Positions 5,869-29,082 of a stretch of 50,942 nucleotides of DNA are shown here, in pieces; the stretch's first letter is position 1, and the number at the start of each line of letters is the position of its first letter. The translations under genes were made by a program, and so were the position numbers. The notes beneath the pieces are model-generated. The model was not told the origin of the DNA and ran no database searches. It saw nothing but the letters and a program-made list of their open reading frames with translations. Location of the stretch: NCBI GenBank assembly GCA_004028505.1, contig MTKO01000075.1, forward strand, positions 1 through 50,942, read 5' to 3'. Source of the DNA: Candidatus Electrothrix aarhusensis. Its GTDB lineage: Bacteria > Desulfobacterota > Desulfobulbia > Desulfobulbales > Desulfobulbaceae.

Positions 5869-6906
5869 ATGAATATTAAAAAAATCATATCCGTTATTCT
5901 CCTTTTCGTCCTGACTTCGTGCTCCAACGTACCCAAAGAAGATATTCCGAAAAAAAATACGGCGCAGCAGAAAACAACTCAAACAACTGTTGCTCTCGAC
6001 ACGAAAACAGATAACGCAGATTCTGACGACATTCTCGATGCCATCCCCCAAGAAGGAAAAAGAATAAAAAAGGAAAAAATTGCAGGCTCTATAGACGTGA
6101 AAGAGGAGGTCGTGATGATGGCAGAAGCTCCTGCCAGAGCCATGTTCGTTGCAAGCACGGCAGTCACCCCGCCCCAACCTGAATGGAACACGGAATCCTA
6201 TAATGCCCGGCAAGAAAACGGCTTCATCAGCACGAGCAACGATCCCCTGTCCACCTTTTCCATTGACGTAGACACAGCCTCCTACAGCAATGTACGCCGT
6301 TTTATCAATGAGGGAAGCCTTCCGCCCAAGGGAGCTGTGCGTATAGAGGAGCTGATCAATTATTTTTCCTATGATTACCCTCAACCGGATAGCGAACATC
6401 CTTTCTCCGTGACAACAGAGGTCGGCCCCTGCCCTTGGAATGACAGCCGAAAGCTGGTTCGAATCGGCCTGAAGGCAAAGGATATTGACAAAAAAGATCT
6501 CCCGCCGTCGAACCTCGTTTTTCTCATCGACGTCTCAGGCTCCATGTCCGAGCAGAACAAACTTCCCCTCCTGCAAAAATCCATGAAAATGCTGGTAAAA
6601 CAGCTGGGCAAGAATGATCGGATTTCCATTGTGGTCTATGCCGGGCATGACCGCGTAGTTTTAGAACCGACAGCCGGTTCTGAACAACAGAAAATCATCG
6701 CCGCCATTGAGGCACTGGGTGCTGGAGGCTCAACCCATGCCTCCAGCGGTATTACCACGGCCTACCAATTGGCGGAACAGGTCCTTCTCCCTAAAGGCAA
6801 TAACCGGATCATCTTGCTTCGGACGGCGATTTCAATGTGGGGATCACCAGTCGTGGCGAGTTACAAAAACTGGTTGAGGAAAAGAGAAAATCAGGTGTCT
6901 TCCTGA
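5869..6906 (+). CDS. YfbK-like von Willebrand factor A lipoprotein, N-terminal portion
   Basis: N-terminal part of an envelope lipoprotein of the YfbK family (VWA plus DUF3520). The start at 5869 has CAGGAG upstream. A signal peptide ends in the lipobox LTSC (C18), so it should be lipid-anchored. The family segment [20 protein letters not shown] is present, followed by a VWA domain with the metal site [11 protein letters not shown] (DxSxS). From about 6818 the frame becomes nonsense (LLRTAISMW), while the next frame reads [15 protein letters not shown], the standard continuation, so a single base is missing near 6815-6820. The coding frame given here therefore ends artificially at 6906. In E. 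coli yfbK is uncharacterised; VWA domains generally mediate metal-dependent protein contacts. Confidence 0.85.
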
Positions 6907-7609
6907 CTGTCCTCGGCTTCGGCATGGGCAACTATCATGATGATACGATGGAAGTTCTCGCAGATAAGGGTAACGGCAACTATGCTATATTGACAGTCTG
7001 CTGGAAGCAAAAAAGGTTATGGTCAAAGAGATGAGCGGCACCCTCTTTGCCCTGGCAAGCGATGTCAAAATTCAGGTAGAATTTAATCCGGCAAAAGTCG
7101 GCGCGTACCGACTGATCGGTTACGAGAACCGGGCCCTTGCTGACGAAGACTTTAACGACGATAAAAAAGACGCCGGTGAAATCGGGGTCGGACACAGGGT
7201 CACGGCCCTGTATGAAATAATCCCGGTCGGTGCTGCTGGCCAACCGACTGTGGATCCGCTCAAATATCAAAAGACCAAGAAGAACGATTCTGATTCAAAG
7301 ACACAATACGCTAACGAGTTGATGACTGTCAAGCTGCGCTATAAACCTCTCCAAACATCCGAATCTGTCCTACTCAGCACAGTGGTGAAGGATAACAAGC
7401 TTGCACTGGAGGAGACTGGTAATGATTTCCGTTTTGCCGCCTCTGTTGCCGGTTTCGGTATGCTGCTCAGCGATTCCGAGCATGCTGACGGCGTCACTTG
7501 GTCGCAAATCCTCACCCTTGCCAAGGGTGCAAAGGGCACGGACGAAGAAGGCTATCGGGCTGAGTTCATACGCCTTGTTGAGACAGCTGAAATACTTACT
7601 GAAAAATAA
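6837..7609 (+). CDS. YfbK-like VWA protein, C-terminal portion (VWA end plus DUF3520)
   Basis: Continuation of the lipoprotein begun at 5869. Bases 6837-6985 encode the end of the VWA domain ([30 protein letters not shown]). A second frame change near 6984 leads into [16 protein letters not shown] and the DUF3520 domain up to 7609. Typical DUF3520 blocks are [27 protein letters not shown] and VAGFGMLL. Inserting one base (GC-N-TAT) restores the family sequence exactly. With both shifts repaired the protein is about 580 residues, which is normal for YfbK. The ATG at 7019 is internal. The repaired gene would be followed 15 bases later by the gene at 7625, suggesting one transcript. Confidence 0.8.
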
Positions 7610-7624
7610 ACTGTAATATTTACT

Positions 7625-8182
7625 ATGATCAGATTTTTCCCTGGAATCCTTATTCTCCAGGCAGTTACGGCAGGACTCTCGTACCTTATCATCACAGGAG
7701 GCCCTTCCACTGAAAACCACCTCTTTTTCGCCATAATCTCTCTAGATATCGCCTTTATCCTCCTCATGGCCCTCTGGTTTTCCGCCATTGCCCGACAAAA
7801 TAATTTTGCGGCAATGGAGTCGCTCAAGGAAGCCCATGCCAAAGAGCGGGAAAAACTCCGGGTTAATGCAGAGCGGCAGAAAAATAGGCTTGCGAACAAG
7901 AAGCACAAGGAGATACTCAAAGAAACAAAACAAGCCTATGCAATGGCGAATATCAAAGTAGGTACAGTTATCACCGGCCTTGTTGCTCTAGGCGGCGTGC
8001 TGCTCTACAGCCAATTTATTACCTTCGGCTCCATACTGTTGACTGCTGGTGGTGGATGCCTGCTCGGATACTTAGCTCGGGCAAAACAGGAAACCCTGTT
8101 CCGATTCCGACGTAACGAACCCTCTCTTCCTGAGCCCTCTCCTGAAGCCACCGTAAAACAAGTACCAAAAAAATTGATATAG
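7625..8182 (+). CDS. Membrane protein with central coiled coil, function unknown
   Basis: A 185-residue protein that I do not recognise. Two hydrophobic helices lie at about residues 5-25 and 33-55. A charged, Lys/Glu-rich coiled coil (about 62-105, with EREKLRVNAERQKNRLANKK) follows, then two more hydrophobic stretches (about 110-130 and 132-148) and a Pro-rich tail. It starts 15 bases after the VWA gene with no clear Shine-Dalgarno sequence, so it probably depends on translation from upstream. The topology suggests an inner-membrane scaffold with a cytoplasmic coiled coil, but no function can be given. Confidence 0.65.
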   Translation: MIRFFPGILILQAVTAGLSYLIITGGPSTENHLFFAIISLDIAFILLMALWFSAIARQNNFAAMESLKEAHAKEREKLRVNAERQKNRLANKKHKEILKETKQAYAMANIKVGTVITGLVALGGVLLYSQFITFGSILLTAGGGCLLGYLARAKQETLFRFRRNEPSLPEPSPEATVKQVPKKLI

Positions 8183-18194: not shown

Positions 18195-20305
18195 TCAGGA
18201 ACCAGCAGCCGGGGAGAACACCACGCGAAACCCTATGCCTTTGATCAAATCGCCAGGAAAGTACCTGTCGCGAAGCGAGCAGCGGACGTACTGCGGGGTA
18301 TCGTGCCAGGACCCGCCCCGGATAACTCTCCCTTCACCCTTGACAGGACCCGGAGGAGTCTTGACTGTCCCCTGCCGCTGACAGTCCGCGTAATACTTCT
18401 CTCCGTACCAGTCCCCACACCATTCCCAGACATTGCCGTGCATATCATGCAAGCCCCAGGCATTGGGTTTCTTCGTCCCAACAGGATAGGTTTTCTTACC
18501 GGAATTTTCTGTATACCAAGCATGCTCACCAAGATGCTTTTCATCATCACCGAAACACCAACTGAACTCACTACCTGCCCGGCAGGCATATTCCCATTCC
18601 GCCTCCGTAGGCAAACGATAGGTGAGCCCGGTTTCCCGAGTCAACCAAACACAATAGGCTGTAGCATCCTGCCAACTGATATTAATCACCGGTCGCTGTC
18701 CCCTACCCCATCCCTCATCGTCTGGCTTTCTTCGTTCAGCTATCTCACAAAAAATATCATATTCCGCAAAGGTGACCGGATAACGACCGATGACAACGCT
18801 GTCCAGCTCTACCTCATGCATCGGTTGTTCATCCTTATCACCATCTCCTTGAATATCACCCATTCGAAAACGACCTCCGGGCAGAAGCACCATCTCCGGG
18901 CCAGTATCACCGTTACGGAGTCGATGCTGTATTTGCAAAGGAACAGGCCAAGAGGCTTTGTACCGCCTGACATAAGCAATCGGATCGAATGCCTCGGGGA
19001 GGATTATCTGATCAAAATACTCAGCTATTCCATCGGCAAGATCAATAAACCGTACCAGCTGGTCCGTAGCCCGCAACGGTTCTTTGTCAACAAGCTGCTT
19101 GTTAACCAACCCCCAGGCCAAGAGAAATTCTTGTATCGTATAATGACTGAAACGAAAAGCTCGGTCAGAGTTGCGGTTGAGCAAAGAACGCCCACCCAGT
19201 TCAAACTTTTCCAGCCAGGCAATATTCTCATCCGCCTGAATTAACTGCTGCAAACTTTCTTCAGAGATGATCCTCCGGTCACCTCCGCCCCGCTCCATCT
19301 GTTCAGCAATCCGCAAACAGGCGTGAAACAATTCTTTGCGCTCCGGTACCCGCTGTTGATCATGCTGTTCCCGGAGCTTACGTACCTCCCGATCCAGCCA
19401 TTCAGCCACCAAGGCCTCATACACCGTATAGGCATTCCAGTCTTGGCGGCACTCCGCAACAAGAAGTTTGTCGATATGCTGAAGCAGCATAGGCCGCATC
19501 CGCAGATCCTGCATGTGCTCCAACAAGCAAACAGCCTTTTCCCGATCTTTCTTAATCTGACCAGCCTGAAAACGAAGATAATGATACCAGTTCAGAGACA
19601 GTTTTCGATGAATGAATTCCTGTACCTGAACATCGGTAAAAGGAGCAAGATAGAGCACCGGACAGTGGTAACCGGAAAGTACCTTGATCTCCGGTCGACC
19701 GAGTCGGTCAGATTCCATTTCCGGAAAAAACTGGGTACGGCTAGAGACAATCACCCGGCGAAAATCCTCGCTGGCCCGCAACAGATCCAGCAGGCGGTCA
19801 CGGATTCTTTTCCAGGCCTGGGGATCCTCATCCAGAGCATCCAGCAGAAGCACCGTTTCCCCTTTATTCGGCAAGGCCTGGACTCGCTCCAGAGTGTCAT
19901 CACCCAACTTCAACAATGCGCAATTATGTCCCGGTGGCCAGAAGCTAGTCAGATGCATAAGCTTGATCATGAGCAGCAAGGAGGTCTTGCCCATCCCAGC
20001 ATCGGAAAGGATGAACATCTGGTGACGCCCGTCCTTTTCTAAAGGCAGGCTCCCCTGAAAAAACTCGTTAATTCGCTCAAAGGCGGGTTGACGGGCTGCG
20101 GCCAGCAGATCCTCCTGCATCACATCCGCCGGATTGCGGTCCTGAAGATAGGGCTCAATATAGAGGCCCTTCAGCGTTTCCGGGTCAACAAACTCGTCCC
20201 GCAAACGACCCAGTTCTTTTTTGTGTTCATGCTTATCCGCCTGAGCTTCTTCCAAAGCGGCTTAATCCACGCGGACTTGATAAAATTCAGGATTTCCAGA
20301 GGCAT
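18195..20305 (-). CDS. NACHT NTPase fused to FGE-sulfatase (C-type-lectin-like) domain
   Basis: An STAND-type NTPase of about 700 residues. Numbering from the internal TTG at 20255, it has Walker A SDAGMGKTS (84-92), Walker B VLLLDALDED (135-144), a helical middle, and a C-terminal FGE-sulfatase domain from about 445 (LPGGRFRMG, ISWQDATAYCVWL, RLPTEAEWEYACRAG, NVWEWCGDWYG, RVIRGGSW). The true start is probably ATG 20305, giving MPLEILNFIKSAWIKPLW, joined after one missing base near 20254. NACHT proteins of this size are bacterial NLR-like sensors and several defend against phage. The last 40 residues resemble a DGR variable region (see separate entry). Defence is inferred; the domains are seen directly. 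Confidence 0.8.
18216..18317 (-). other. Candidate DGR variable region at the NACHT-FGE C-terminus
   Basis: The segment from GGSW to GFRVV lines up with the usual target pattern of diversity-generating retroelements, where variable residues replace template Asn. At the expected positions the codons are CAC, GAT, ACC, TAC, CTT, GAC, TAC, TTT, GAT, ATC and GGC: nearly all end in C or T, as AAC/AAT-derived codons would. The fixed residues (GGSW, P, R, R, R, P, IGFRV) are kept. Ordinary FGE domains share this frame, and no template repeat or reverse transcriptase lies in the window, so this is only a candidate. Confidence 0.35.
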
Positions 20306-22774: not shown

Positions 22775-23500
22775 TTACACATGCCCGTCCCCCCGATCAA
22801 ACTCCTGCCAAAGCTTCTGATACATGCGATTCATGACCGTTTCCACCTGCTGTCGGTATTCCTCCACCCGCGCAGAGGTCAACTTGGGTTCCACATAAAT
22901 CGGGTCACCGTATTGCAAAATAATGGGACTGAAAGGCATGGGAATAACCGAATGGTCCCAGGATTTGAAAGCCTTATAACGCTTTGTCGCCCAGACAACG
23001 GGCACGATCGGCGAGCCGGATGTTGCCGCCAGCATAATAGCGCCGGGCTGCATCTTCAAAGCCGGTCCCTGAGAGCCGTCGGCCACGATCCCGGCATTCT
23101 TACCTTGCTTGACATGATCCACCATCCCCTTCAGCGCCCTGACCCCGAAACGATTGGCTGAACCGCGCACGGTCTCAAATCCGAGAAGACCAGCCACCTG
23201 GGCAATGTATTCACCATCCTTGCTCGCACTGACCATAGCCACACCGGGATATTGTCGCAGATGGTAAAGCATATAAAAGACGGAATAATGCCATATCGGC
23301 ACCACCGCCCCTCCTTGGCCCATTACTTTCTGCAAATTCTCCTGCCCTCGAATCTGTACAGGACAGGTGCCGAACCAGATACTGGTCAAGGCGACATAAA
23401 GCCGGGGGACAACCGCAAGAGACGTTTTATAAACAAGGTCATTCACACAAACAGCTCCATCTTCCAACCGAAGTCGGGAAGGGATACCAGCTCTTACCAT
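22775..23500 (-). CDS. DUF374 lysophospholipid-acyltransferase-like protein
   Basis: A 241-residue DUF374 protein, related to the LpxL/PlsC acyltransferases of Gram-negative membranes. Family features include VVPIWHYSVFYMLYHLRQ (a variant of the H-x4-D/H site), MVSASKDGEYIAQVAGLLGF, the block TVRGSANRFGVRALKGMV and the loop GIVADGSQGPALKMQPG. It probably acylates a lipid A or phospholipid precursor at the inner membrane. It starts 16 bases after the upstream transglutaminase gene and is likely co-transcribed with it. That linkage may be accidental, but it makes a membrane lipid enzyme the last gene of the caspase-transglutaminase operon. Confidence 0.75.
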   Translation of the reverse strand: MVRAGIPSRLRLEDGAVCVNDLVYKTSLAVVPRLYVALTSIWFGTCPVQIRGQENLQKVMGQGGAVVPIWHYSVFYMLYHLRQYPGVAMVSASKDGEYIAQVAGLLGFETVRGSANRFGVRALKGMVDHVKQGKNAGIVADGSQGPALKMQPGAIMLAATSGSPIVPVVWATKRYKAFKSWDHSVIPMPFSPIILQYGDPIYVEPKLTSARVEEYRQQVETVMNRMYQKLWQEFDRGDGHV

Positions 23501-23516
23501 CTTTTATCAGATCTTA

Positions 23517-24986
23517 TCAGCTGTTTGAAAACTCGATCAACTGTTCCACAATAGCAGCCAACGGAGCCTGTTCATATTCCGCAGCCATTGAAGCACTCTG
23601 CTGCCACTGCTGTGCCAACGGCTGACCACTCTGCCAATTTTCATCCAGCGAAATATGTCGTTCTGCTGCCGTCAGAAGGCGCTCGCCCTGAACCGGGGTC
23701 CAAAGAAAATCTGGATGCGCATTCTGGTACCATTCTCCTCCGATGATATTTCCGGCAAAGTCAAGTTCAAGATCATAGAGATATTTAACCGTCTTTACCT
23801 GATCATCGGCTGCGCTGTCAGTTTCCGTGTGCTCTGGAACTTTCTCAACGATATAGGAAACCTTCATCTCAACCCCTACAATACTATCGGTCTCATTACT
23901 ACGAAATTGAGCAAATTTATCATTGAAAAAATCACCGACAGCCACCTTTGCCTCAGCCACCGAATCAACATAATACATACTTTTCGGATGAAAATAACGG
24001 TAACTATAGGACACGATCGGTTGATTCCAAACTTGATAATCATAGGTAGCATCCATCACCATGCTGCGACGGGAGGCTCCAATCTGATTAACAATGGACA
24101 GATGCCAAGTGCCTGGATTCGTATCAAAACAAATCTGGGAGAGAATCCGACCGGTCTGCGGATCCTTGGCCGGGTTCTTATCGTTACAACGTCCACCGAT
24201 AAACCGGGAACGACATTTCACCTTTGCCCACAGCAAAGTGGCCAATGCCTTCACGTCAGCAGGATAAAAAGTGATATAGGTACTTCCATCAGCAGCGAGA
24301 ACTGTGGCTGTCCCAGTGGGGCGAGGTAACATATAAGAAGCCGGGGCCCAGCCGTGACAAAGCCCCATCCAGGTCTCGACCTTCCCGCTCCGAACATAAT
24401 ATTTCCTTCCCTGCTCCCACATCTTTCGGGTCAGCGAATAATCTATATCACCAACAAGGATATCGTATTTTTCTGCCGGAGAAAGACGATTGATCGCCTC
24501 AGTGTTTCCTTGCGCCACAATTTCGGCAGCTGGGTATTGTTTGATGTAATCGTAGTTTTCTTTCCAATCTCCTGAAGCAGGAAAATTGGGATCGGCGTAG
24601 CGGTTTCCAAGAGAACCGAGATACAGGGCCCAGTAATCATCAGACCAAGGAGATTCTTCCAGGCTGGCACGCATAAGCCCATTCTCTTCCATACTCTGCA
24701 AGCCGGAGAAACGAAGCTCGTCAACAAAGCCGTCCGCTTCATCATTATCCGCAAAGGCAGCCCTGCCCACAGCAATCTCGTCCCGTTCACTGACCTGCCG
24801 GCGCAAGGCATCACGGGCCTCGACATGGGCATTCTGCTCAATACCTGTCTGGTCAAAAATACTTGCGTCCGAGGAATCAAGCGTTTCCCCGTCATATTTG
24901 AGGGGAACTCGATTCATGAACTCCACAGGATTTTCATGAAATTCCTGCACGCCCGTATTGAGCTCTTTTTCCTGTTCATCAGACAT
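23517..24986 (-). CDS. Transglutaminase-elicitor-type protein, shorter paralogue (B)
   Basis: A 489-residue protein with a strong AGGAGGAGAG site before ATG 24986. The core matches the transglutaminase-elicitor family (papain-like fold, known from Phytophthora GP42). The presumed triad is C210 in GLCHGWAPASYMLPRP, H295 in NPGTWHLSIV and D312 in MDATYDYQVWNQP. There is no signal peptide, so it should be cytoplasmic. It is homologous over its whole length to the protein at 27385-29082, including N-terminal blocks (GRAAFADNDEADGFVD, PWSDDYWALYLG) and a shared tail, QAPLAAIVEQLIEFSNS. It follows the 25123 gene by 136 bases. Members cross-link proteins via Gln and Lys; the bacterial role is unknown. 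Confidence 0.75.
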   Translation of the reverse strand: MSDEQEKELNTGVQEFHENPVEFMNRVPLKYDGETLDSSDASIFDQTGIEQNAHVEARDALRRQVSERDEIAVGRAAFADNDEADGFVDELRFSGLQSMEENGLMRASLEESPWSDDYWALYLGSLGNRYADPNFPASGDWKENYDYIKQYPAAEIVAQGNTEAINRLSPAEKYDILVGDIDYSLTRKMWEQGRKYYVRSGKVETWMGLCHGWAPASYMLPRPTGTATVLAADGSTYITFYPADVKALATLLWAKVKCRSRFIGGRCNDKNPAKDPQTGRILSQICFDTNPGTWHLSIVNQIGASRRSMVMDATYDYQVWNQPIVSYSYRYFHPKSMYYVDSVAEAKVAVGDFFNDKFAQFRSNETDSIVGVEMKVSYIVEKVPEHTETDSAADDQVKTVKYLYDLELDFAGNIIGGEWYQNAHPDFLWTPVQGERLLTAAERHISLDENWQSGQPLAQQWQQSASMAAEYEQAPLAAIVEQLIEFSNS

Positions 24987-25122
24987 GATTCTCTCCTCCT
25001 GATTTTACGAGTAAAATATTTCATTCCTCCCTATCATTCCAAACTTCTGACGGGAGAGGTGTTTCTCTTTCTTTGCAATAAAACGTACATCGGTGGTAAC
25101 CCGGTATACGGCCTTGCCTTCT

Positions 25123-26286
25123 CTACACTTCCATACTGTCCAGGCGATGGATAAGCCAAAGAGATGTCGTCAGCAAGCTGCCAGCAATCTGAGCGGTCAA
25201 GGAACCCGGCGAAACAATAACTTTTCTTTGTTCGACCGCCTGGGAGATGCGATCCCAATTGGAACGGAGCATTGGCGGAGCTGGAAAAACCGGGCGCATT
25301 TCAGCCGCCTGATGCAGCATAAAGGCCTGAAGATCTGGATGCTCAAAAAAATCAGCAGGCAGCTTTTTGAGCAGGGAAGCCAGCGAGGCGACATCAATAC
25401 TTCTCCCCTGTCCTGACAGAGAATGCGCTGCAAAGATAACCTGCATAGGATTCAAGTATTCTTCCCTGAGCAGGCTGGACACAGCAACCTCTGTAACCAC
25501 CTCACGCCCATGCAGCAAACCAAGCCGGAGAAGCTCCACCTGACGAGCAACCTCATCTGCGGAATCAAAACCTTGGCCCACTTCCGTCATTAACACAGAA
25601 GCAGAGGGCAAGGCGGCCCGGTATGCATCGACATCGGTGAGCCAGTCCGCTTCGGATAAGGCAAAAATCTGGGTCTGCCAGCCTGCCACTGTCCTTATAA
25701 ACATCTCATAGGATTCTCCTGGCTCTACCTCCACCCGCAGGCGATACGTCCCAGGATCAACTTCAAGATGCAGGGCGAAAAATCCGTTTTCCTGATCACA
25801 GGTTCCCTGACTCGACTCAGCAAGCAGGGTGCCGTCAAGATTGTGCAGAGTGATTCCTTCCCAAGGGACAGAGGCTGATACCAATGCAGATCCCGATACA
25901 GACTCAACTTTATCCCGGATAAACAAAAAGAGACATGAACCTTCCCCTTTTTTTTCGCTGGCTGACCGGGAAAACTCCTCGGCAGCGTTCCGATGCACTT
26001 CCTGCTCCGTTCCCATCCCGGCAAAGGGCACCGGTGAGTTGAAGTCTACCGGAATGCCATCAACCTCCTGGGGCCCTGCTTCAGGGCTCACCTCAATCAG
26101 CTGATCAACCTGCTTTTGCCCGATACGAAACCGGGCTTTATATATACCTGGCGCAACCAAAGCTTCAAGTTGCCCGACATCATTAGCTATCAACTGAAAA
26201 AGACTGTTGACCAAAAAAATCTCACTCAAATGGTCATGTGCTCGTACAGTAAGCCTGATCTGCTTTTCAGACGGTAATTCCTGCAT
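25123..26286 (-). CDS. Caspase-operon accessory protein with beta-sandwich-like repeats, unknown
   Basis: A 387-residue protein that I do not recognise. Two segments share a 'L-x-PGxY+x+x...g...e' pattern: LEALVAPGIYKARFRIG near residue 45 and LHLEVDPGTYRLRVEVEPG near 175. The same pattern occurs in the neighbouring 114-residue protein, so all three look like one beta-sandwich type. The C-terminal half (about 215-387) is helical (VARQVELLRLGLLHGREVVT, LASLLKKLPADFFEHPDLQA). It overlaps the preceding gene by 20 bases, indicating coupled translation. No signal peptide is seen. A binding or adaptor role beside the caspase is possible but unproven. Confidence 0.6.
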   Translation of the reverse strand: MQELPSEKQIRLTVRAHDHLSEIFLVNSLFQLIANDVGQLEALVAPGIYKARFRIGQKQVDQLIEVSPEAGPQEVDGIPVDFNSPVPFAGMGTEQEVHRNAAEEFSRSASEKKGEGSCLFLFIRDKVESVSGSALVSASVPWEGITLHNLDGTLLAESSQGTCDQENGFFALHLEVDPGTYRLRVEVEPGESYEMFIRTVAGWQTQIFALSEADWLTDVDAYRAALPSASVLMTEVGQGFDSADEVARQVELLRLGLLHGREVVTEVAVSSLLREEYLNPMQVIFAAHSLSGQGRSIDVASLASLLKKLPADFFEHPDLQAFMLHQAAEMRPVFPAPPMLRSNWDRISQAVEQRKVIVSPGSLTAQIAGSLLTTSLWLIHRLDSMEV

Positions 26287-26611
26287 GATTCGGCACCTCG
26301 AATATTTGCTGACGGTCTGTATTTTTCACCGCAATCTTATAGAGTCCAGGCTCCAGTTCCAGGGTCAGGCTTGAAGAATTCGCCTTTTCTTCTCTGATTT
26401 TCTGAAAATTTCCGTCGGAAAGCACCAAGGTCTCTTCTCCCTTATAGGATTCCAGGGCAACTCTGACAGGAACAGTTTGCGCTGATTTACGGTAAAGAAA
26501 GGTTATATCCCGGGAGGAGTCTAATCTGATCTCAGGCGGCTCTATATGGGCATCACCGGCAAAGGCATCAATACTGTTATGGATCTGATCCTTGATCTGC
26601 TGCCCGGTCAC
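26267..26611 (-). CDS. Small caspase-operon accessory protein, unknown
   Basis: A 114-residue protein starting with GTG 26611, which overlaps the caspase TGA stop (GTGA). It has a short helical start (TGQQIKDQIHNSIDAF) and a beta-rich rest ending LTLELEPGLYKIAVKNTDRQ, the same PGxY motif seen twice in the next protein. It overlaps that gene by 20 bases. The tight coupling caspase-114 aa-387 aa suggests a fixed stoichiometry. No known family was recognised. Confidence 0.6.
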   Translation of the reverse strand: MTGQQIKDQIHNSIDAFAGDAHIEPPEIRLDSSRDITFLYRKSAQTVPVRVALESYKGEETLVLSDGNFQKIREEKANSSSLTLELEPGLYKIAVKNTDRQQIFEVPNHAGITV

Positions 26612-27267
26612 TCTGCCTGCTTGGGTCGAGCTGTTTGTAAGGCATGCAGAAATGTTTTGGTGAAAATGCCTGAATCTCTGCCGTCTTCAAAACGCCTTTC
26701 CCGAGCCACTCGCCCTCTTCCCACAGCAAAGGCGGAAAAAAAGCGTACCTGATCTGCCCCGGTTCGTCCCTTTGTCGTGGGATACTGGGGTTCTTTCACC
26801 TCATGATAGGAGTTTATCGTGCGACAGCAGTCCATGAGCAAGACGATTTCATCAAAGACCGCATGGCGACGCAGCCAGTCCACATAATCGGTGATCGCCA
26901 CATGCCAGGGAAACATCTTCTGTGCATTGGCAGCATAGAGGGCTGTTGTTCCCATATCACCGGGATCACCGAAACCATGCCCAGCAACAAAAATATAGAT
27001 CCGCTCGCCGCATCTTCCCTGCACGCCCTTGGTGATAAAGGGCTCAAACAAGGCTTCAATCTGATTCGGGAAGGGCAAGGCAGCATCTTTCTCAAAATCC
27101 GTGGATACAATGCATTGGATATGCCCTTCCGGGACATTGCCGCCCTGTGGATCACGCAACCAAGCAGAAAAATCTTCAGCATCGTTGACCGGCCCCTTCA
27201 GGGAAGGCAAGCCGCTCACCGGGTAGCTATTGATTCCGATAACGATGGCATGATGTTCATTCTTCAT
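26608..27267 (-). CDS. Caspase-like (peptidase C14) protease
   Basis: A 219-residue caspase-fold protease. ATG 27267 begins MKNEHHAIVIGINSYP, the standard first strand; the longer frame upstream is not needed. The catalytic dyad is visible: H97 in YIFVAGHGFG and C148 in LLMDCCRT (second Cys, by alignment with the DxC motif of metacaspases). GPVNDAEDFSAWL is the usual helix after the first strand. There is no attached sensor domain and no signal peptide, so partners must supply activation. It sits between two transglutaminase paralogues and directly before two accessory genes. Bacterial C14 proteases often serve in abortive infection or regulated cell death; here that is inferred from family only. 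Confidence 0.85.
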   Translation of the reverse strand: MKNEHHAIVIGINSYPVSGLPSLKGPVNDAEDFSAWLRDPQGGNVPEGHIQCIVSTDFEKDAALPFPNQIEALFEPFITKGVQGRCGERIYIFVAGHGFGDPGDMGTTALYAANAQKMFPWHVAITDYVDWLRRHAVFDEIVLLMDCCRTINSYHEVKEPQYPTTKGRTGADQVRFFSAFAVGRGRVARERRFEDGRDSGIFTKTFLHALQTARPKQAE

Positions 27268-27384
27268 CTTTATTATTCTTTGCAGACGTTGCAGACATCT
27301 CTGATGAAAGAGCATAATAAGATTTTCCCTTTGCCCGCCTCCTGGACCCAAAATCAGTTCAGGTCATTAACTCAGGCGATCAAA

Positions 27385-29082
27385 TCAGGAGTTGGAGAAC
27401 TTGATCAGCTGCTCCACAATGGCAGCCAGAGGTGCCTGCTGATATCCTGATGTCGTCGCCGCAATCTGACACCACTCCTTGGAAAGCGGCTCCTCACTTT
27501 TCCAGGATCCTGATATCCCATAGCGTTTTTCCCAGTAAGAAACAGCTCTGCTCCCTTTTTCTGGGGTCCAGAGAAAATCCGGATGCGCATTCTGATACCA
27601 TTCACCGCCGATAATATTACCCATAGCATCAAGTTCCAAATCATAATAATAACGAACTGTCTGCACCCTGTCGTACTTGGAACTGTCTTTTAAACGATGG
27701 TCAGGACGGGTCTCCACGATATAGGAAATATCCATGGCAATCCCCACAATAGTATCGGTTTCCCCATCCCTATACTTCCTGAACCTATCGTTATCAAAGC
27801 TTGTTCTCAAAACAGACGCCTCTGCCAGAGAACGGGCATAACGCATCTTTTGCGGATTAAAGTGCCTGTACTTATACCCGACAATAGGCTGATTCCAAAC
27901 TTCATAATCATAGGTGGCATCAAGCACCATACTGCGCTGTGAAGCCCCTATCTGGTTAACCACAGCAAGATGCCAAGTGCCGGGATTGGTATCAAAACAT
28001 TTTCCAGACAAAATTCGCCCGGTCTGTGGATCGACTGCTGGATTCTTTTCATTACAGCGGCCACCAATAAATCGCGATGCTGTTTTAACCTTTGCCCAAA
28101 GAAGGGTAGAGAGCGCCTTAATATCTGAAGGATAAAAGGTGATAAATGTTTTGCCATCCGCAGCTAAAACTGTTGCGACAGCCGTGGGCCGAGGAAGCAT
28201 ATAGGCAGCTGGGGCCCAGCCGTGACAAAGTCCCATCCACGGCTCAACCTTACCGTTACGGGTATAATAGTACTCCCCTGCCTCCCACATCTTTTCAGTC
28301 AGCGTCATATTTTTATCGCCAACCAAAATATCATATTTTTCCGAAGGGGAAAGTCTATTTACGGCATCGCTGTCACCGCTTTCCATAATCTGCAAAGCAG
28401 GATTATTCTCGATATAATCAAAATTGTCCTTCCAATCCGAGACCCCAGGAAAACGCGGATCAGCATAGCGATGGCCTAGCATCCCCAGATAAATAGCCCA
28501 ATAATCATCCGACCAGGGCTGTTCCTCCAATCGAGCACTCATCTGCCCGTTATCTTCCATTCCCCGTAATCCCGAGTACGGAAAGGTGTCGACAAAGCCA
28601 TCTGCCTGATCATTTTCCGCAAATGCGGCCCTCCCAGCAGCGATGACATCCAGTTCGGTCAGCTCCTGCCGTTTCTCATCACGAGCATCAACAAAGACCT
28701 TCTCACCCACTGCCTCAGCGTCAAAAAGCGATGCCGATACCTCCGAACTGATCTGCTCCCCCTGCTCATCATACTTTACAGGTAACTTGTCCATAAACGT
28801 GACTGGATCAGCTTGCAACTCGTCCAGCCCTGCGTTGATCAGCTCTTCATCCGTCTGCTGTTCACCCGCTGTATGGCCAACAGGATCAAGAGCAACGTCA
28901 GCATCACTGCTGTTTGCTGTCTGCCCCTGGTCTAAGCCAGCTTGCTCCACACCCGCTAGCTCTGCGTCCGCTGGTTCCGACGGCTCAGTCTCTGCAACCG
29001 GTCCTGGTGCTGAAGACGGATCGGCAGATCCTTTCAAAAAATTAAATAAAAAGCAGTTATGCTTTTTTTCCGGTGTAGCCAT
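27385..29082 (-). CDS. Transglutaminase-elicitor-type protein, longer paralogue (A)
   Basis: A 565-residue protein with AGGAGGAG before ATG 29082, first gene of the caspase operon. Residues 1-80 are an acidic, Ala/Glu/Ser-rich, low-complexity extension absent from paralogue B. The presumed triad is C286 in MGLCHGWAPAAYMLPRP, H371 in NPGTWHLAVV and D388 in LDATYDYEVWNQP. Like its paralogue it lacks a signal peptide and ends in QAPLAAIVEQLIKFSNS. The conserved N-terminal part (about 80-270), ahead of the catalytic Cys, may be a pro-domain as in other transglutaminases. A tempting but unproven idea is that the neighbouring caspase cleaves in the acidic extension or pro-region. Confidence 0.75.
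   Translation of the reverse strand: MATPEKKHNCFLFNFLKGSADPSSAPGPVAETEPSEPADAELAGVEQAGLDQGQTANSSDADVALDPVGHTAGEQQTDEELINAGLDELQADPVTFMDKLPVKYDEQGEQISSEVSASLFDAEAVGEKVFVDARDEKRQELTELDVIAAGRAAFAENDQADGFVDTFPYSGLRGMEDNGQMSARLEEQPWSDDYWAIYLGMLGHRYADPRFPGVSDWKDNFDYIENNPALQIMESGDSDAVNRLSPSEKYDILVGDKNMTLTEKMWEAGEYYYTRNGKVEPWMGLCHGWAPAAYMLPRPTAVATVLAADGKTFITFYPSDIKALSTLLWAKVKTASRFIGGRCNEKNPAVDPQTGRILSGKCFDTNPGTWHLAVVNQIGASQRSMVLDATYDYEVWNQPIVGYKYRHFNPQKMRYARSLAEASVLRTSFDNDRFRKYRDGETDTIVGIAMDISYIVETRPDHRLKDSSKYDRVQTVRYYYDLELDAMGNIIGGEWYQNAHPDFLWTPEKGSRAVSYWEKRYGISGSWKSEEPLSKEWCQIAATTSGYQQAPLAAIVEQLIKFSNS

What the first reader, a model, noticed from the sequence alone, without database searches (positions are those of the whole stretch)
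22775..29082. Operon pairing a caspase-like protease with two transglutaminase-elicitor paralogues
Directly seen: one strand, in order, TGase-like A, C14 caspase, a 114-aa and a 387-aa accessory protein (overlapping starts), TGase-like B, then a DUF374 acyltransferase. The caspase has H97/C148 and both TGases keep Cys-His-Asp. Neither has a signal peptide. Known: C14 proteases in bacteria take part in abortive infection, and eukaryotic transglutaminases are activated by proteolysis and act in cell death. Inference: the caspase may switch on intracellular protein cross-linking as a stress or antiphage response. I know of no described system with this set.
Basis: partly seen in the sequence, partly recalled or inferred. 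Interest (0 to 1): 0.85.

Follow-up and report, generated by a model that had tools for sequence, protein, structure and literature searches.

The report
Caspase-linked protein cross-linkers in cable bacteria
Cable bacteria, the electricity-conducting filaments of sediments, carry a conserved gene set in which a caspase-like protease and a partner protein sit beside enzymes of a protein-cross-linking family that seem to stay inside the cell, and the same protease pair sits beside other enzymes in unrelated bacteria, which points to a switchable response inside the cell.

Summary
The gene set is real and its core is conserved. The window is from a cable bacterium near Candidatus Electrothrix marina. 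One correction: the "114-aa protein" is the caspase's C-terminal domain, cut off here by a one-base frame change; 11 of 11 other cable genomes with the cassette read it as one protein.

TGase A-caspase-p387 (the 387-aa protein) occurs in 12 of 13 cable genomes found and in none of the other 244 genomes of the order. The order of the three genes is kept in the second genus, where the flanking genes differ.

The caspase-p387 pair was also found at seven loci outside cable bacteria. In six the gene in front is an alpha/beta-hydrolase (three), a Zn-metallopeptidase (two) or a subtilisin (one); in one locus caspase and p387 are fused. The transglutaminase fills that variable slot, so I read it as the effector the protease controls. 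Cable TGases form one clade within a branch without signal peptides, shared with Leucothrix relatives; most other bacterial relatives look secreted.

The inferred caspase-TGase link is thus supported indirectly. Activation by cleavage, cross-linking and cell death are inference, and antiphage use is unproven. Paper searches found nothing joining these parts.

The parts
27385..29082 (-). TGase A, 565 aa, PF16683, with N-terminal HNCxLxN..KG-like peptide and low-complexity linker
26608..27315 (-). Caspase (peptidase C14) catalytic part; frame ends early here; start at 27315 or 27267
26267..26611 (-).
25123..26286 (-). p387: partner of the caspase; probably beta domains plus a helical end (poor model)
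23517..24986 (-). TGase B, 489 aa, PF16683, without the A-type extension
22775..23500 (-). DUF374 acyltransferase-like gene; neighbour conserved in Electrothrix only, not core

Best explanation
A protease switch coupled to an intracellular effector. The caspase and p387 act together as a sensor-protease unit in the cytoplasm. When triggered, the caspase cleaves and so switches on the enzyme encoded beside it: an alpha/beta-hydrolase, a Zn-metallopeptidase or a subtilisin in other bacteria, GP42-type transglutaminases in cable bacteria. TGase A is probably held at a surface, most likely the inner membrane, by its N-terminal peptide and flexible linker; TGase B is free. The active TGases would cross-link proteins of the affected cell and disable it while it stays in the filament. 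Shown: the gene set, its conservation, conserved catalytic residues, no signal peptide by hydropathy, the exchange of the neighbouring enzyme, one caspase-p387 fusion. Inferred: contact, cleavage, cross-linking, tethering, cell death, the trigger.
For: TGase A-caspase-p387 together in 12 of 13 cable genomes; p387 in 12 of 257 genomes of the order. Order kept while flanks differ between the genera. Exchange of the front enzyme with the same pair: homologous alpha/beta-hydrolases in G491, G826 and on Mesorhizobium onobrychidis pOM4 (33-37% identical in the two comparisons made; Pfam matches weak or none); astacin/matrixin-like Zn-metallopeptidase in G1098 and on Sinorhizobium terangae pCB3126_2; S8 subtilisin on Mesorhizobium huakuii p_2. 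Caspase and p387 are one 901-aa protein in S. terangae. Caspase His/Cys in 12 of 12 cable genomes; TGase C 90/90, next His 88/90, later His 92/92, Asp 92/92, cable 24 of 24. TGases without signal peptide and in one branch with those of the Leucothrix order. In 4 of 43 loci of that order a ~2000-aa CHAT protein (another caspase-fold class, recalled) lies directly upstream of the TGase; two of the four were scanned and carry hydrolase, CHAT and TPR-S domains. Those four TGases form one clade, so this is one event.
Against: G074 (95% complete) has a TGase but no p387 match and no caspase beside it. 38 of 43 loci of the Leucothrix order and 65 of 65 loci L014-L078 show no caspase or CHAT hit within the flank held, so this TGase family works without the switch elsewhere. 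S. mexicanum has no clear front enzyme. The S. terangae fusion has no Pfam C14 match at 0.01, only the PADLOC caspase model (E 8e-6) and a readable GHG...DAC pattern. No cleavage site is known. The frame change in this window would, if real, truncate the caspase here.
Confidence: 0.55

Rival explanations
1. Structural cross-linking: the TGases are housekeeping enzymes of filamentous sulfur bacteria that harden envelope, septum or junction proteins, and the caspase is a maturation protease with no role in death or defence.
For: Present in all 13 cable genomes found and in 36 of 63 genomes of the Leucothrix order; in 22 of 40 regions of that order the TGase lies beside a tadA-like gene by motif, a stable chromosomal setting; tails that look like tethers; conserved flanks in Electrothrix; purifying selection.
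Against: Cytoplasmic enzymes would have to reach periplasmic structures; the caspase-p387 pair is found with a hydrolase, peptidases and a nuclease elsewhere, some copies on conjugative plasmids beside insertion sequences.
Confidence: 0.25
2. Dedicated antiphage abortive infection: the same switch as in the best explanation, with phage as its trigger. This is a narrower reading, so its odds overlap with it.
For: Caspase with an exchangeable enzyme resembles bacterial conflict systems (PMC7159879 and PMC8195603, passages and one section read); plasmid-borne relatives.
Against: Present in every cable genome found and vertically kept; no PADLOC system; no p387 or TGase match in 50,697 phage records, which says nothing about defence itself.
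Confidence: 0.2
3. Opposite sign: the caspase is a brake that destroys the TGases, or the TGases act as deamidases or peptidases rather than cross-linkers.
For: The family is papain-like in fold with an unusual active site (PMC10318531, passages); activity is untested for any bacterial member seen here.
Against: The exchange of unrelated enzymes in the same slot fits activation better than degradation (inference).
Confidence: 0.12
4. Chance neighbours without a functional tie.
For: The genome has five further caspase-domain stretches; TGases occur without the caspase elsewhere.
Against: Conserved order in 12 genomes with different flanks; overlap of the caspase and p387 reading frames.
Confidence: 0.03

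Closest known systems
GP42 transglutaminase / PF16683 TGase_elicitor (Phytophthora, Vibrio)
   Same: Same family: Pfam E 1e-40, 3tw5 E 1e-24, CH motif and VWNQP stretch kept
   Different: 46 of 63 other bacterial relatives show a signal-peptide-like start, and a Vibrio plasmid copy is annotated with a ricin-type lectin domain; cable members have no such start, and A-type members carry a terminal extension
EACC1-caspase two-gene conflict systems (PMC7159879)
   Same: Constant caspase with a variable effector, enriched in multicellular bacteria; the EACC1-type caspase model is the nearest NCBIfam model
   Different: 29.8-52.1 bits against a cutoff of 140; partner is p387; the effector is a separate gene in front, not a C-terminal fusion
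VMAP ternary systems with caspase plus alpha/beta-hydrolase (same paper)
   Same: Caspase paired with a neighbouring alpha/beta-hydrolase gene, as in G491, G826 and pOM4; rare transglutaminase-like peptidase domains are mentioned
   Different: No MoxR, vWA or VMAP match among the nine window genes scanned; the passages read name neither PF16683 nor a p387-like partner
NucA-peptidase system (System 3, same paper)
   Same: Alphaproteobacterial Endonuclease_NS, trypsin and S8 peptidase genes; two of the seven caspase-p387 loci outside cable bacteria (G1098, S. mexicanum) have an Endonuclease_NS-trypsin protein downstream, and pOM4 has trypsin
   Different: The section read does not mention a caspase; no endonuclease match in the cable cassette
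CHAT proteases
   Same: Directly upstream of the TGase in L012, L187, L190, L196
   Different: The cable protease is C14, not CHAT, and no p387 match was found in the Leucothrix pacifica genome G259

Membership tests
TGase_elicitor (PF16683) | Pfam gathering score | tested here: met
   139.7 and 138.6 bits, cutoff 25
TGase_elicitor (PF16683) | Cys-His (CH) motif described for GP42 | tested here: met
   C 90/90, H 88/90, cable 24 of 24; motif from PMC10318531 passages
TGase_elicitor (PF16683) | Secretion, as in GP42 and most bacterial relatives (a usual trait, not part of the Pfam definition) | tested here: not met
   0 of 24 cable frames show a signal-peptide-like stretch, against 46 of 63 others
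TGase_elicitor (PF16683) | Transglutaminase activity | not testable with these tools
   no assay
Peptidase C14 caspase (PF00656) | Pfam score and His/Cys pair | tested here: met
   37.9 bits, cutoff 21.4; His/Cys in 12 of 12 cable genomes
EACC1-associated caspase system | NCBIfam NF047832 cutoff | tested here: not met
   45.9 bits against 140
EACC1-associated caspase system | EACC1 gene beside the caspase | tested here: inconclusive
   no named match for the neighbours, but no EACC1 model was run
VMAP / MoxR-vWA ternary system | MoxR, vWA and VMAP genes | tested here: not met
   no such Pfam match among nine window genes scanned
Antiphage system in PADLOC | full gene set of a listed system | tested here: not met
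   caspase model only, plus a weak BrxC match to TGase A
NucA-peptidase system | NucA endonuclease and trypsin core | tested here: not met
   absent from the window genes scanned; present beside the pair in G1098 and S. mexicanum

The most novel reading that the evidence does not exclude
Filamentous sulfur bacteria share a branch of intracellular transglutaminases, and in cable bacteria a caspase-p387 switch turns them on to cross-link a dying or infected cell into an inert, sealed segment so that the filament and its conductive sheath survive: a bacterial counterpart of cornification in skin, where caspase-14 and transglutaminases act (comparison and filamentous habit recalled).
Probability: 0.2. 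Interest if true: 0.95.

Novelty: new variant of a known kind. Interest (0 to 1): 0.8.

Why it matters
It offers a testable candidate for programmed cell death or controlled protein cross-linking in cable bacteria, where the fate of one dead cell matters to the whole conductive filament. It also describes a modular pair, caspase plus p387, with exchangeable enzymes in several lineages; p387 itself has no Pfam or NCBIfam match above cutoff in the window. The pair predicts that the neighbouring enzymes are made inactive and switched on by caspase cleavage. And it shows that a transglutaminase family known from plant-pathogen elicitors has an intracellular branch.

Tried and rejected
Structure predictions of p387 and of the intact E. 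marina caspase were poor (mean pLDDT 46.2 and 47.5), so no fold search was run. PDB profile searches with p387 and caspase alignments gave one weak hit each (E 0.58 and 0.24), taken as chance. Promoter and terminator scans were near shuffled levels (12 against 9.8 and 10 against 6.6). No caspase cleavage site was searched for systematically; I only looked at the N-terminal linkers, which vary. Rejected: p114 as a gene of its own; DUF374 as a core member; a p387 match in G643 (E 5e-4), whose neighbours are chemotaxis genes. Suggestive only: likeness of the caspase C-terminal domain to the first p387 beta domain (hhalign probability 60; the second gives 1). The tether idea for the Leucothrix-order tails is a guess: 24 of 25 long tails end in a W/F/L/R-rich segment, but helical-moment z-scores run only from -0.8 to 2.7.

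Limits. The PF00656 search of the own genome missed the window's caspase, so absence counts are upper bounds on absence. That all genomes of the two cable genera were searched is inferred from unbroken handles G071-G082 plus G000; genomes without a match are not all listed. Two other genomes of the order have weak partial PF16683 matches (G216, G240). dN/dS rests on one pair of genomes. Of the 65 loci L014-L078, 41 hold at least 5 kb on both sides; of the 43 of the Leucothrix order, 34 do. L195 and L198 lack the CH motif. The name Thiotrichales and the filamentous habit are recalled. Paper searches for cable bacteria with transglutaminase, cable bacteria with caspase, Thiothrix with transglutaminase, and transglutaminase with antiphage and caspase each returned 0 papers; TGase_elicitor returned one paper, on Pythium (listing only); two searches gave nothing useful. 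The library holds openly licensed papers only, and the GP42 structure paper is not in it.
Full report
WHERE IT IS. The window is contig 61 of a 3.7-Mb genome. Its nearest named relative is Candidatus Electrothrix marina (TGase B 92% identical), so it is a cable bacterium. All genes lie on the minus strand: TGase A 27385-29082, caspase 26608-27315, a 114-aa frame 26267-26611, p387 25123-26286, TGase B 23517-24986, DUF374 22775-23500.

WHAT THE PARTS ARE. TGase A and B are PF16683 TGase_elicitor, the family of the oomycete GP42 transglutaminase (3tw5). In an alignment of 92 sequences the nucleophile Cys is kept in 90/90 and the following His in 88/90, the CH motif described for GP42 in PMC10318531 (passages read). 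A later His (92/92) and an Asp (92/92) are also kept, so either arrangement of the active site is possible; cable rows keep all four in 24 of 24. This alignment predates the Leucothrix-order set, where 41 of 43 frames keep the CH motif. The caspase is PF00656, with the GHG His and DCC Cys in 12 of 12 cable genomes. p387 has no Pfam or NCBIfam match above cutoff.

CORRECTION. In the 11 other cable genomes that carry the cassette, the caspase and the 114-aa frame are one open frame. The window differs by one base at the junction. Both halves show purifying selection against G080 (dN/dS 0.09 and 0.13; other genes 0.11-0.29). There is thus no 114-aa gene; the split is a recent mutation or an assembly error.

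CONSERVATION IN CABLE BACTERIA. PF16683 occurs in 15 of 257 genomes of the order: 8 of the window's genus, 5 of a second genus that includes Candidatus Electronema sp. KV, and two elsewhere with weak partial matches. I take the 13 as all cable genomes held, because their handles run without a gap. p387 occurs in 12 of 257, all cable. TGase A, caspase and p387 stand together in those 12. Within the window's genus 6 of 6 further regions fetched keep the two-component genes on one side and DUF374 and ApbA on the other; in the second genus none of 4 cassette regions shares a flanking gene with the window at E 1e-10. The three genes have been kept as a unit while the surroundings changed. TGase B follows p387 in 7 of 8 Electrothrix-genus genomes, and in the eighth (G079) it lies on another short contig. 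In the second genus it follows p387 in G072, where its frame is broken in two, lies elsewhere in G073 and G075, and was not found in G071. G074, 95% complete, has a lone B-type TGase and no p387 match, so the linkage is strong but not absolute.

THE PAIR OUTSIDE CABLE BACTERIA. p387 profiles found one credible further genome in 395 of the phylum (G491, E 9e-46; a second match, G643, was rejected) and 2 of 398 Pseudomonadota (G826, G1098). Plasmid searches with three p387 queries found four records. At all seven loci p387 is next to, or fused with, a caspase. The gene in front is an alpha/beta-hydrolase in G491, G826 and on M. onobrychidis pOM4. These three are homologous (37% and 33% identical to the G491 copy); their Pfam matches are below cutoff or absent, and the name rests on the GHSxG motif and on the RefSeq label of pOM4. 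It is an astacin/matrixin-like metallopeptidase in G1098 and S. terangae, and an S8 subtilisin in M. huakuii. In S. mexicanum the two genes in front gave no enzyme match, and an Endonuclease_NS-trypsin protein follows p387; G1098 has one too. In S. terangae caspase and p387 are a single 901-aa protein, without a Pfam C14 match at 0.01 but with a PADLOC caspase match. Read by eye, the starts of five front enzymes (G491, G826, M. huakuii, S. terangae, pOM4) show no clear signal peptide. The transglutaminase of cable bacteria takes the front position.

THE TGASE BRANCH. A hydrophobic, signal-peptide-like N-terminal stretch was found in 0 of 24 cable, 0 of 43 Leucothrix-order and 46 of 63 other TGase frames; the 17 others without one include five between 1.39 and 1.78 (threshold 1.8), cut-off frames and divergent copies. 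In a tree of 86 (24 cable, 43 Leucothrix-order, 19 chosen from the 63 others) the cable TGases are one clade (100/100) inside a branch with 41 of the 43 Leucothrix-order rows (99/96); two divergent copies fall outside. PF16683 was found in 36 of 63 genomes of the order of Leucothrix pacifica, but in a sample of 369 genomes of its class only in 3, all from that order; Vibrio, Shewanella and other Gammaproteobacteria also carry it and were not caught by that sample. In L012, L187, L190 and L196, 4 of 43 loci, a ~2000-aa CHAT protein lies directly upstream on the same strand; a fifth, L183, has a shorter CHAT frame on the opposite strand. Two of the four were scanned and carry DUF7379, LCAT, CHAT and TPR-S. 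No caspase or CHAT hit was found in 65 of 65 loci L014-L078 within the flank held. In 22 of 40 fetched regions the TGase lies beside a tadA-like gene by motif. 25 of 40 TGases have a tail of 45-144 residues, 24 ending in a W/F/L/R-rich segment. Cable TGase A has a comparable extension at its N-terminus, rich in His and Cys in the second genus.

MECHANISM. A constant caspase-p387 pair with an exchangeable enzyme is best explained as a switch: a signal activates the caspase, which cleaves and activates the enzyme beside it. In cable bacteria the enzyme is a transglutaminase, which implies protein cross-linking as the outcome. I give 0.55 to the switch as a whole. Its purpose (cell death, phage response, hardening of a cell or junction) is open. 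Presence in every cable genome found argues for a core programme; relatives on conjugative plasmids argue that the pair itself belongs with conflict systems.

WHAT IS KNOWN. Caspase-centred systems with variable effectors in multicellular bacteria were described by Kaur et al. (PMC7159879, passages and one section; PMC8195603, passages). These name EACC1-caspase, VMAP caspase with alpha/beta-hydrolase, and NucA-trypsin systems, and rare transglutaminase-like peptidase domains, but in what I read neither PF16683 nor a p387-like partner. The E. marina caspase falls below the EACC1-type cutoff (45.9 against 140 bits). I file the cassette as a new variant of a known kind. Four paper searches for the combination returned nothing.

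CHANGES ON CHECKING. 

Noticed in passing
window 26608-26611: A one-base frame change splits the caspase from its C-terminal domain only in this window; mutation or assembly error.
   Followed up: partly
L106, L086, L013, L090 (TGase A N-termini): In the second cable genus the TGase A linker is rich in His and Cys, like a metal-binding stretch; conductive fibres of cable bacteria hold nickel (abstract start of PMC12093952 in the listing).
   Followed up: no
cable TGase A and B (tree): A and B of one genus group together although the A-type N-terminus is shared by both genera, suggesting gene conversion of the cores.
   Followed up: partly
L162-L200: TGases of the Leucothrix order often carry Pro/Thr/Ser-rich tails ending in segments like SWLSRLLRRWFG, and 22 of 40 lie beside a tadA-like gene.
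   Followed up: partly
window 18195-20255: A 686-aa protein with an FGE-sulfatase domain and a weak nSTAND3/NACHT-like part; a related gene lies at the same side in G077 and G081. Possibly another conflict-type protein.
   Followed up: no
L079-L083: Five further caspase-domain stretches in the own genome, two in frames over 1100 aa.
   Followed up: no
L215 about 6300-8100 (G076): A frame of 494 codons with a signal-peptide-like start lies between TGase B and DUF374; G081 has a gap of similar size.
   Followed up: no
L011 5536-9747: A patatin-like phospholipase gene lies divergent from the TGase of a Thiotrichaceae genome.
   Followed up: no
L195 and L198: Two very divergent PF16683 copies in the Leucothrix order without the CH motif, each beside a frame of 855 codons.
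   Followed up: no
L055, L059: A record titled Streptomyces griseus holds TGases that group with Bdellovibrionota-type ones; the bin is probably mislabelled.
   Followed up: no
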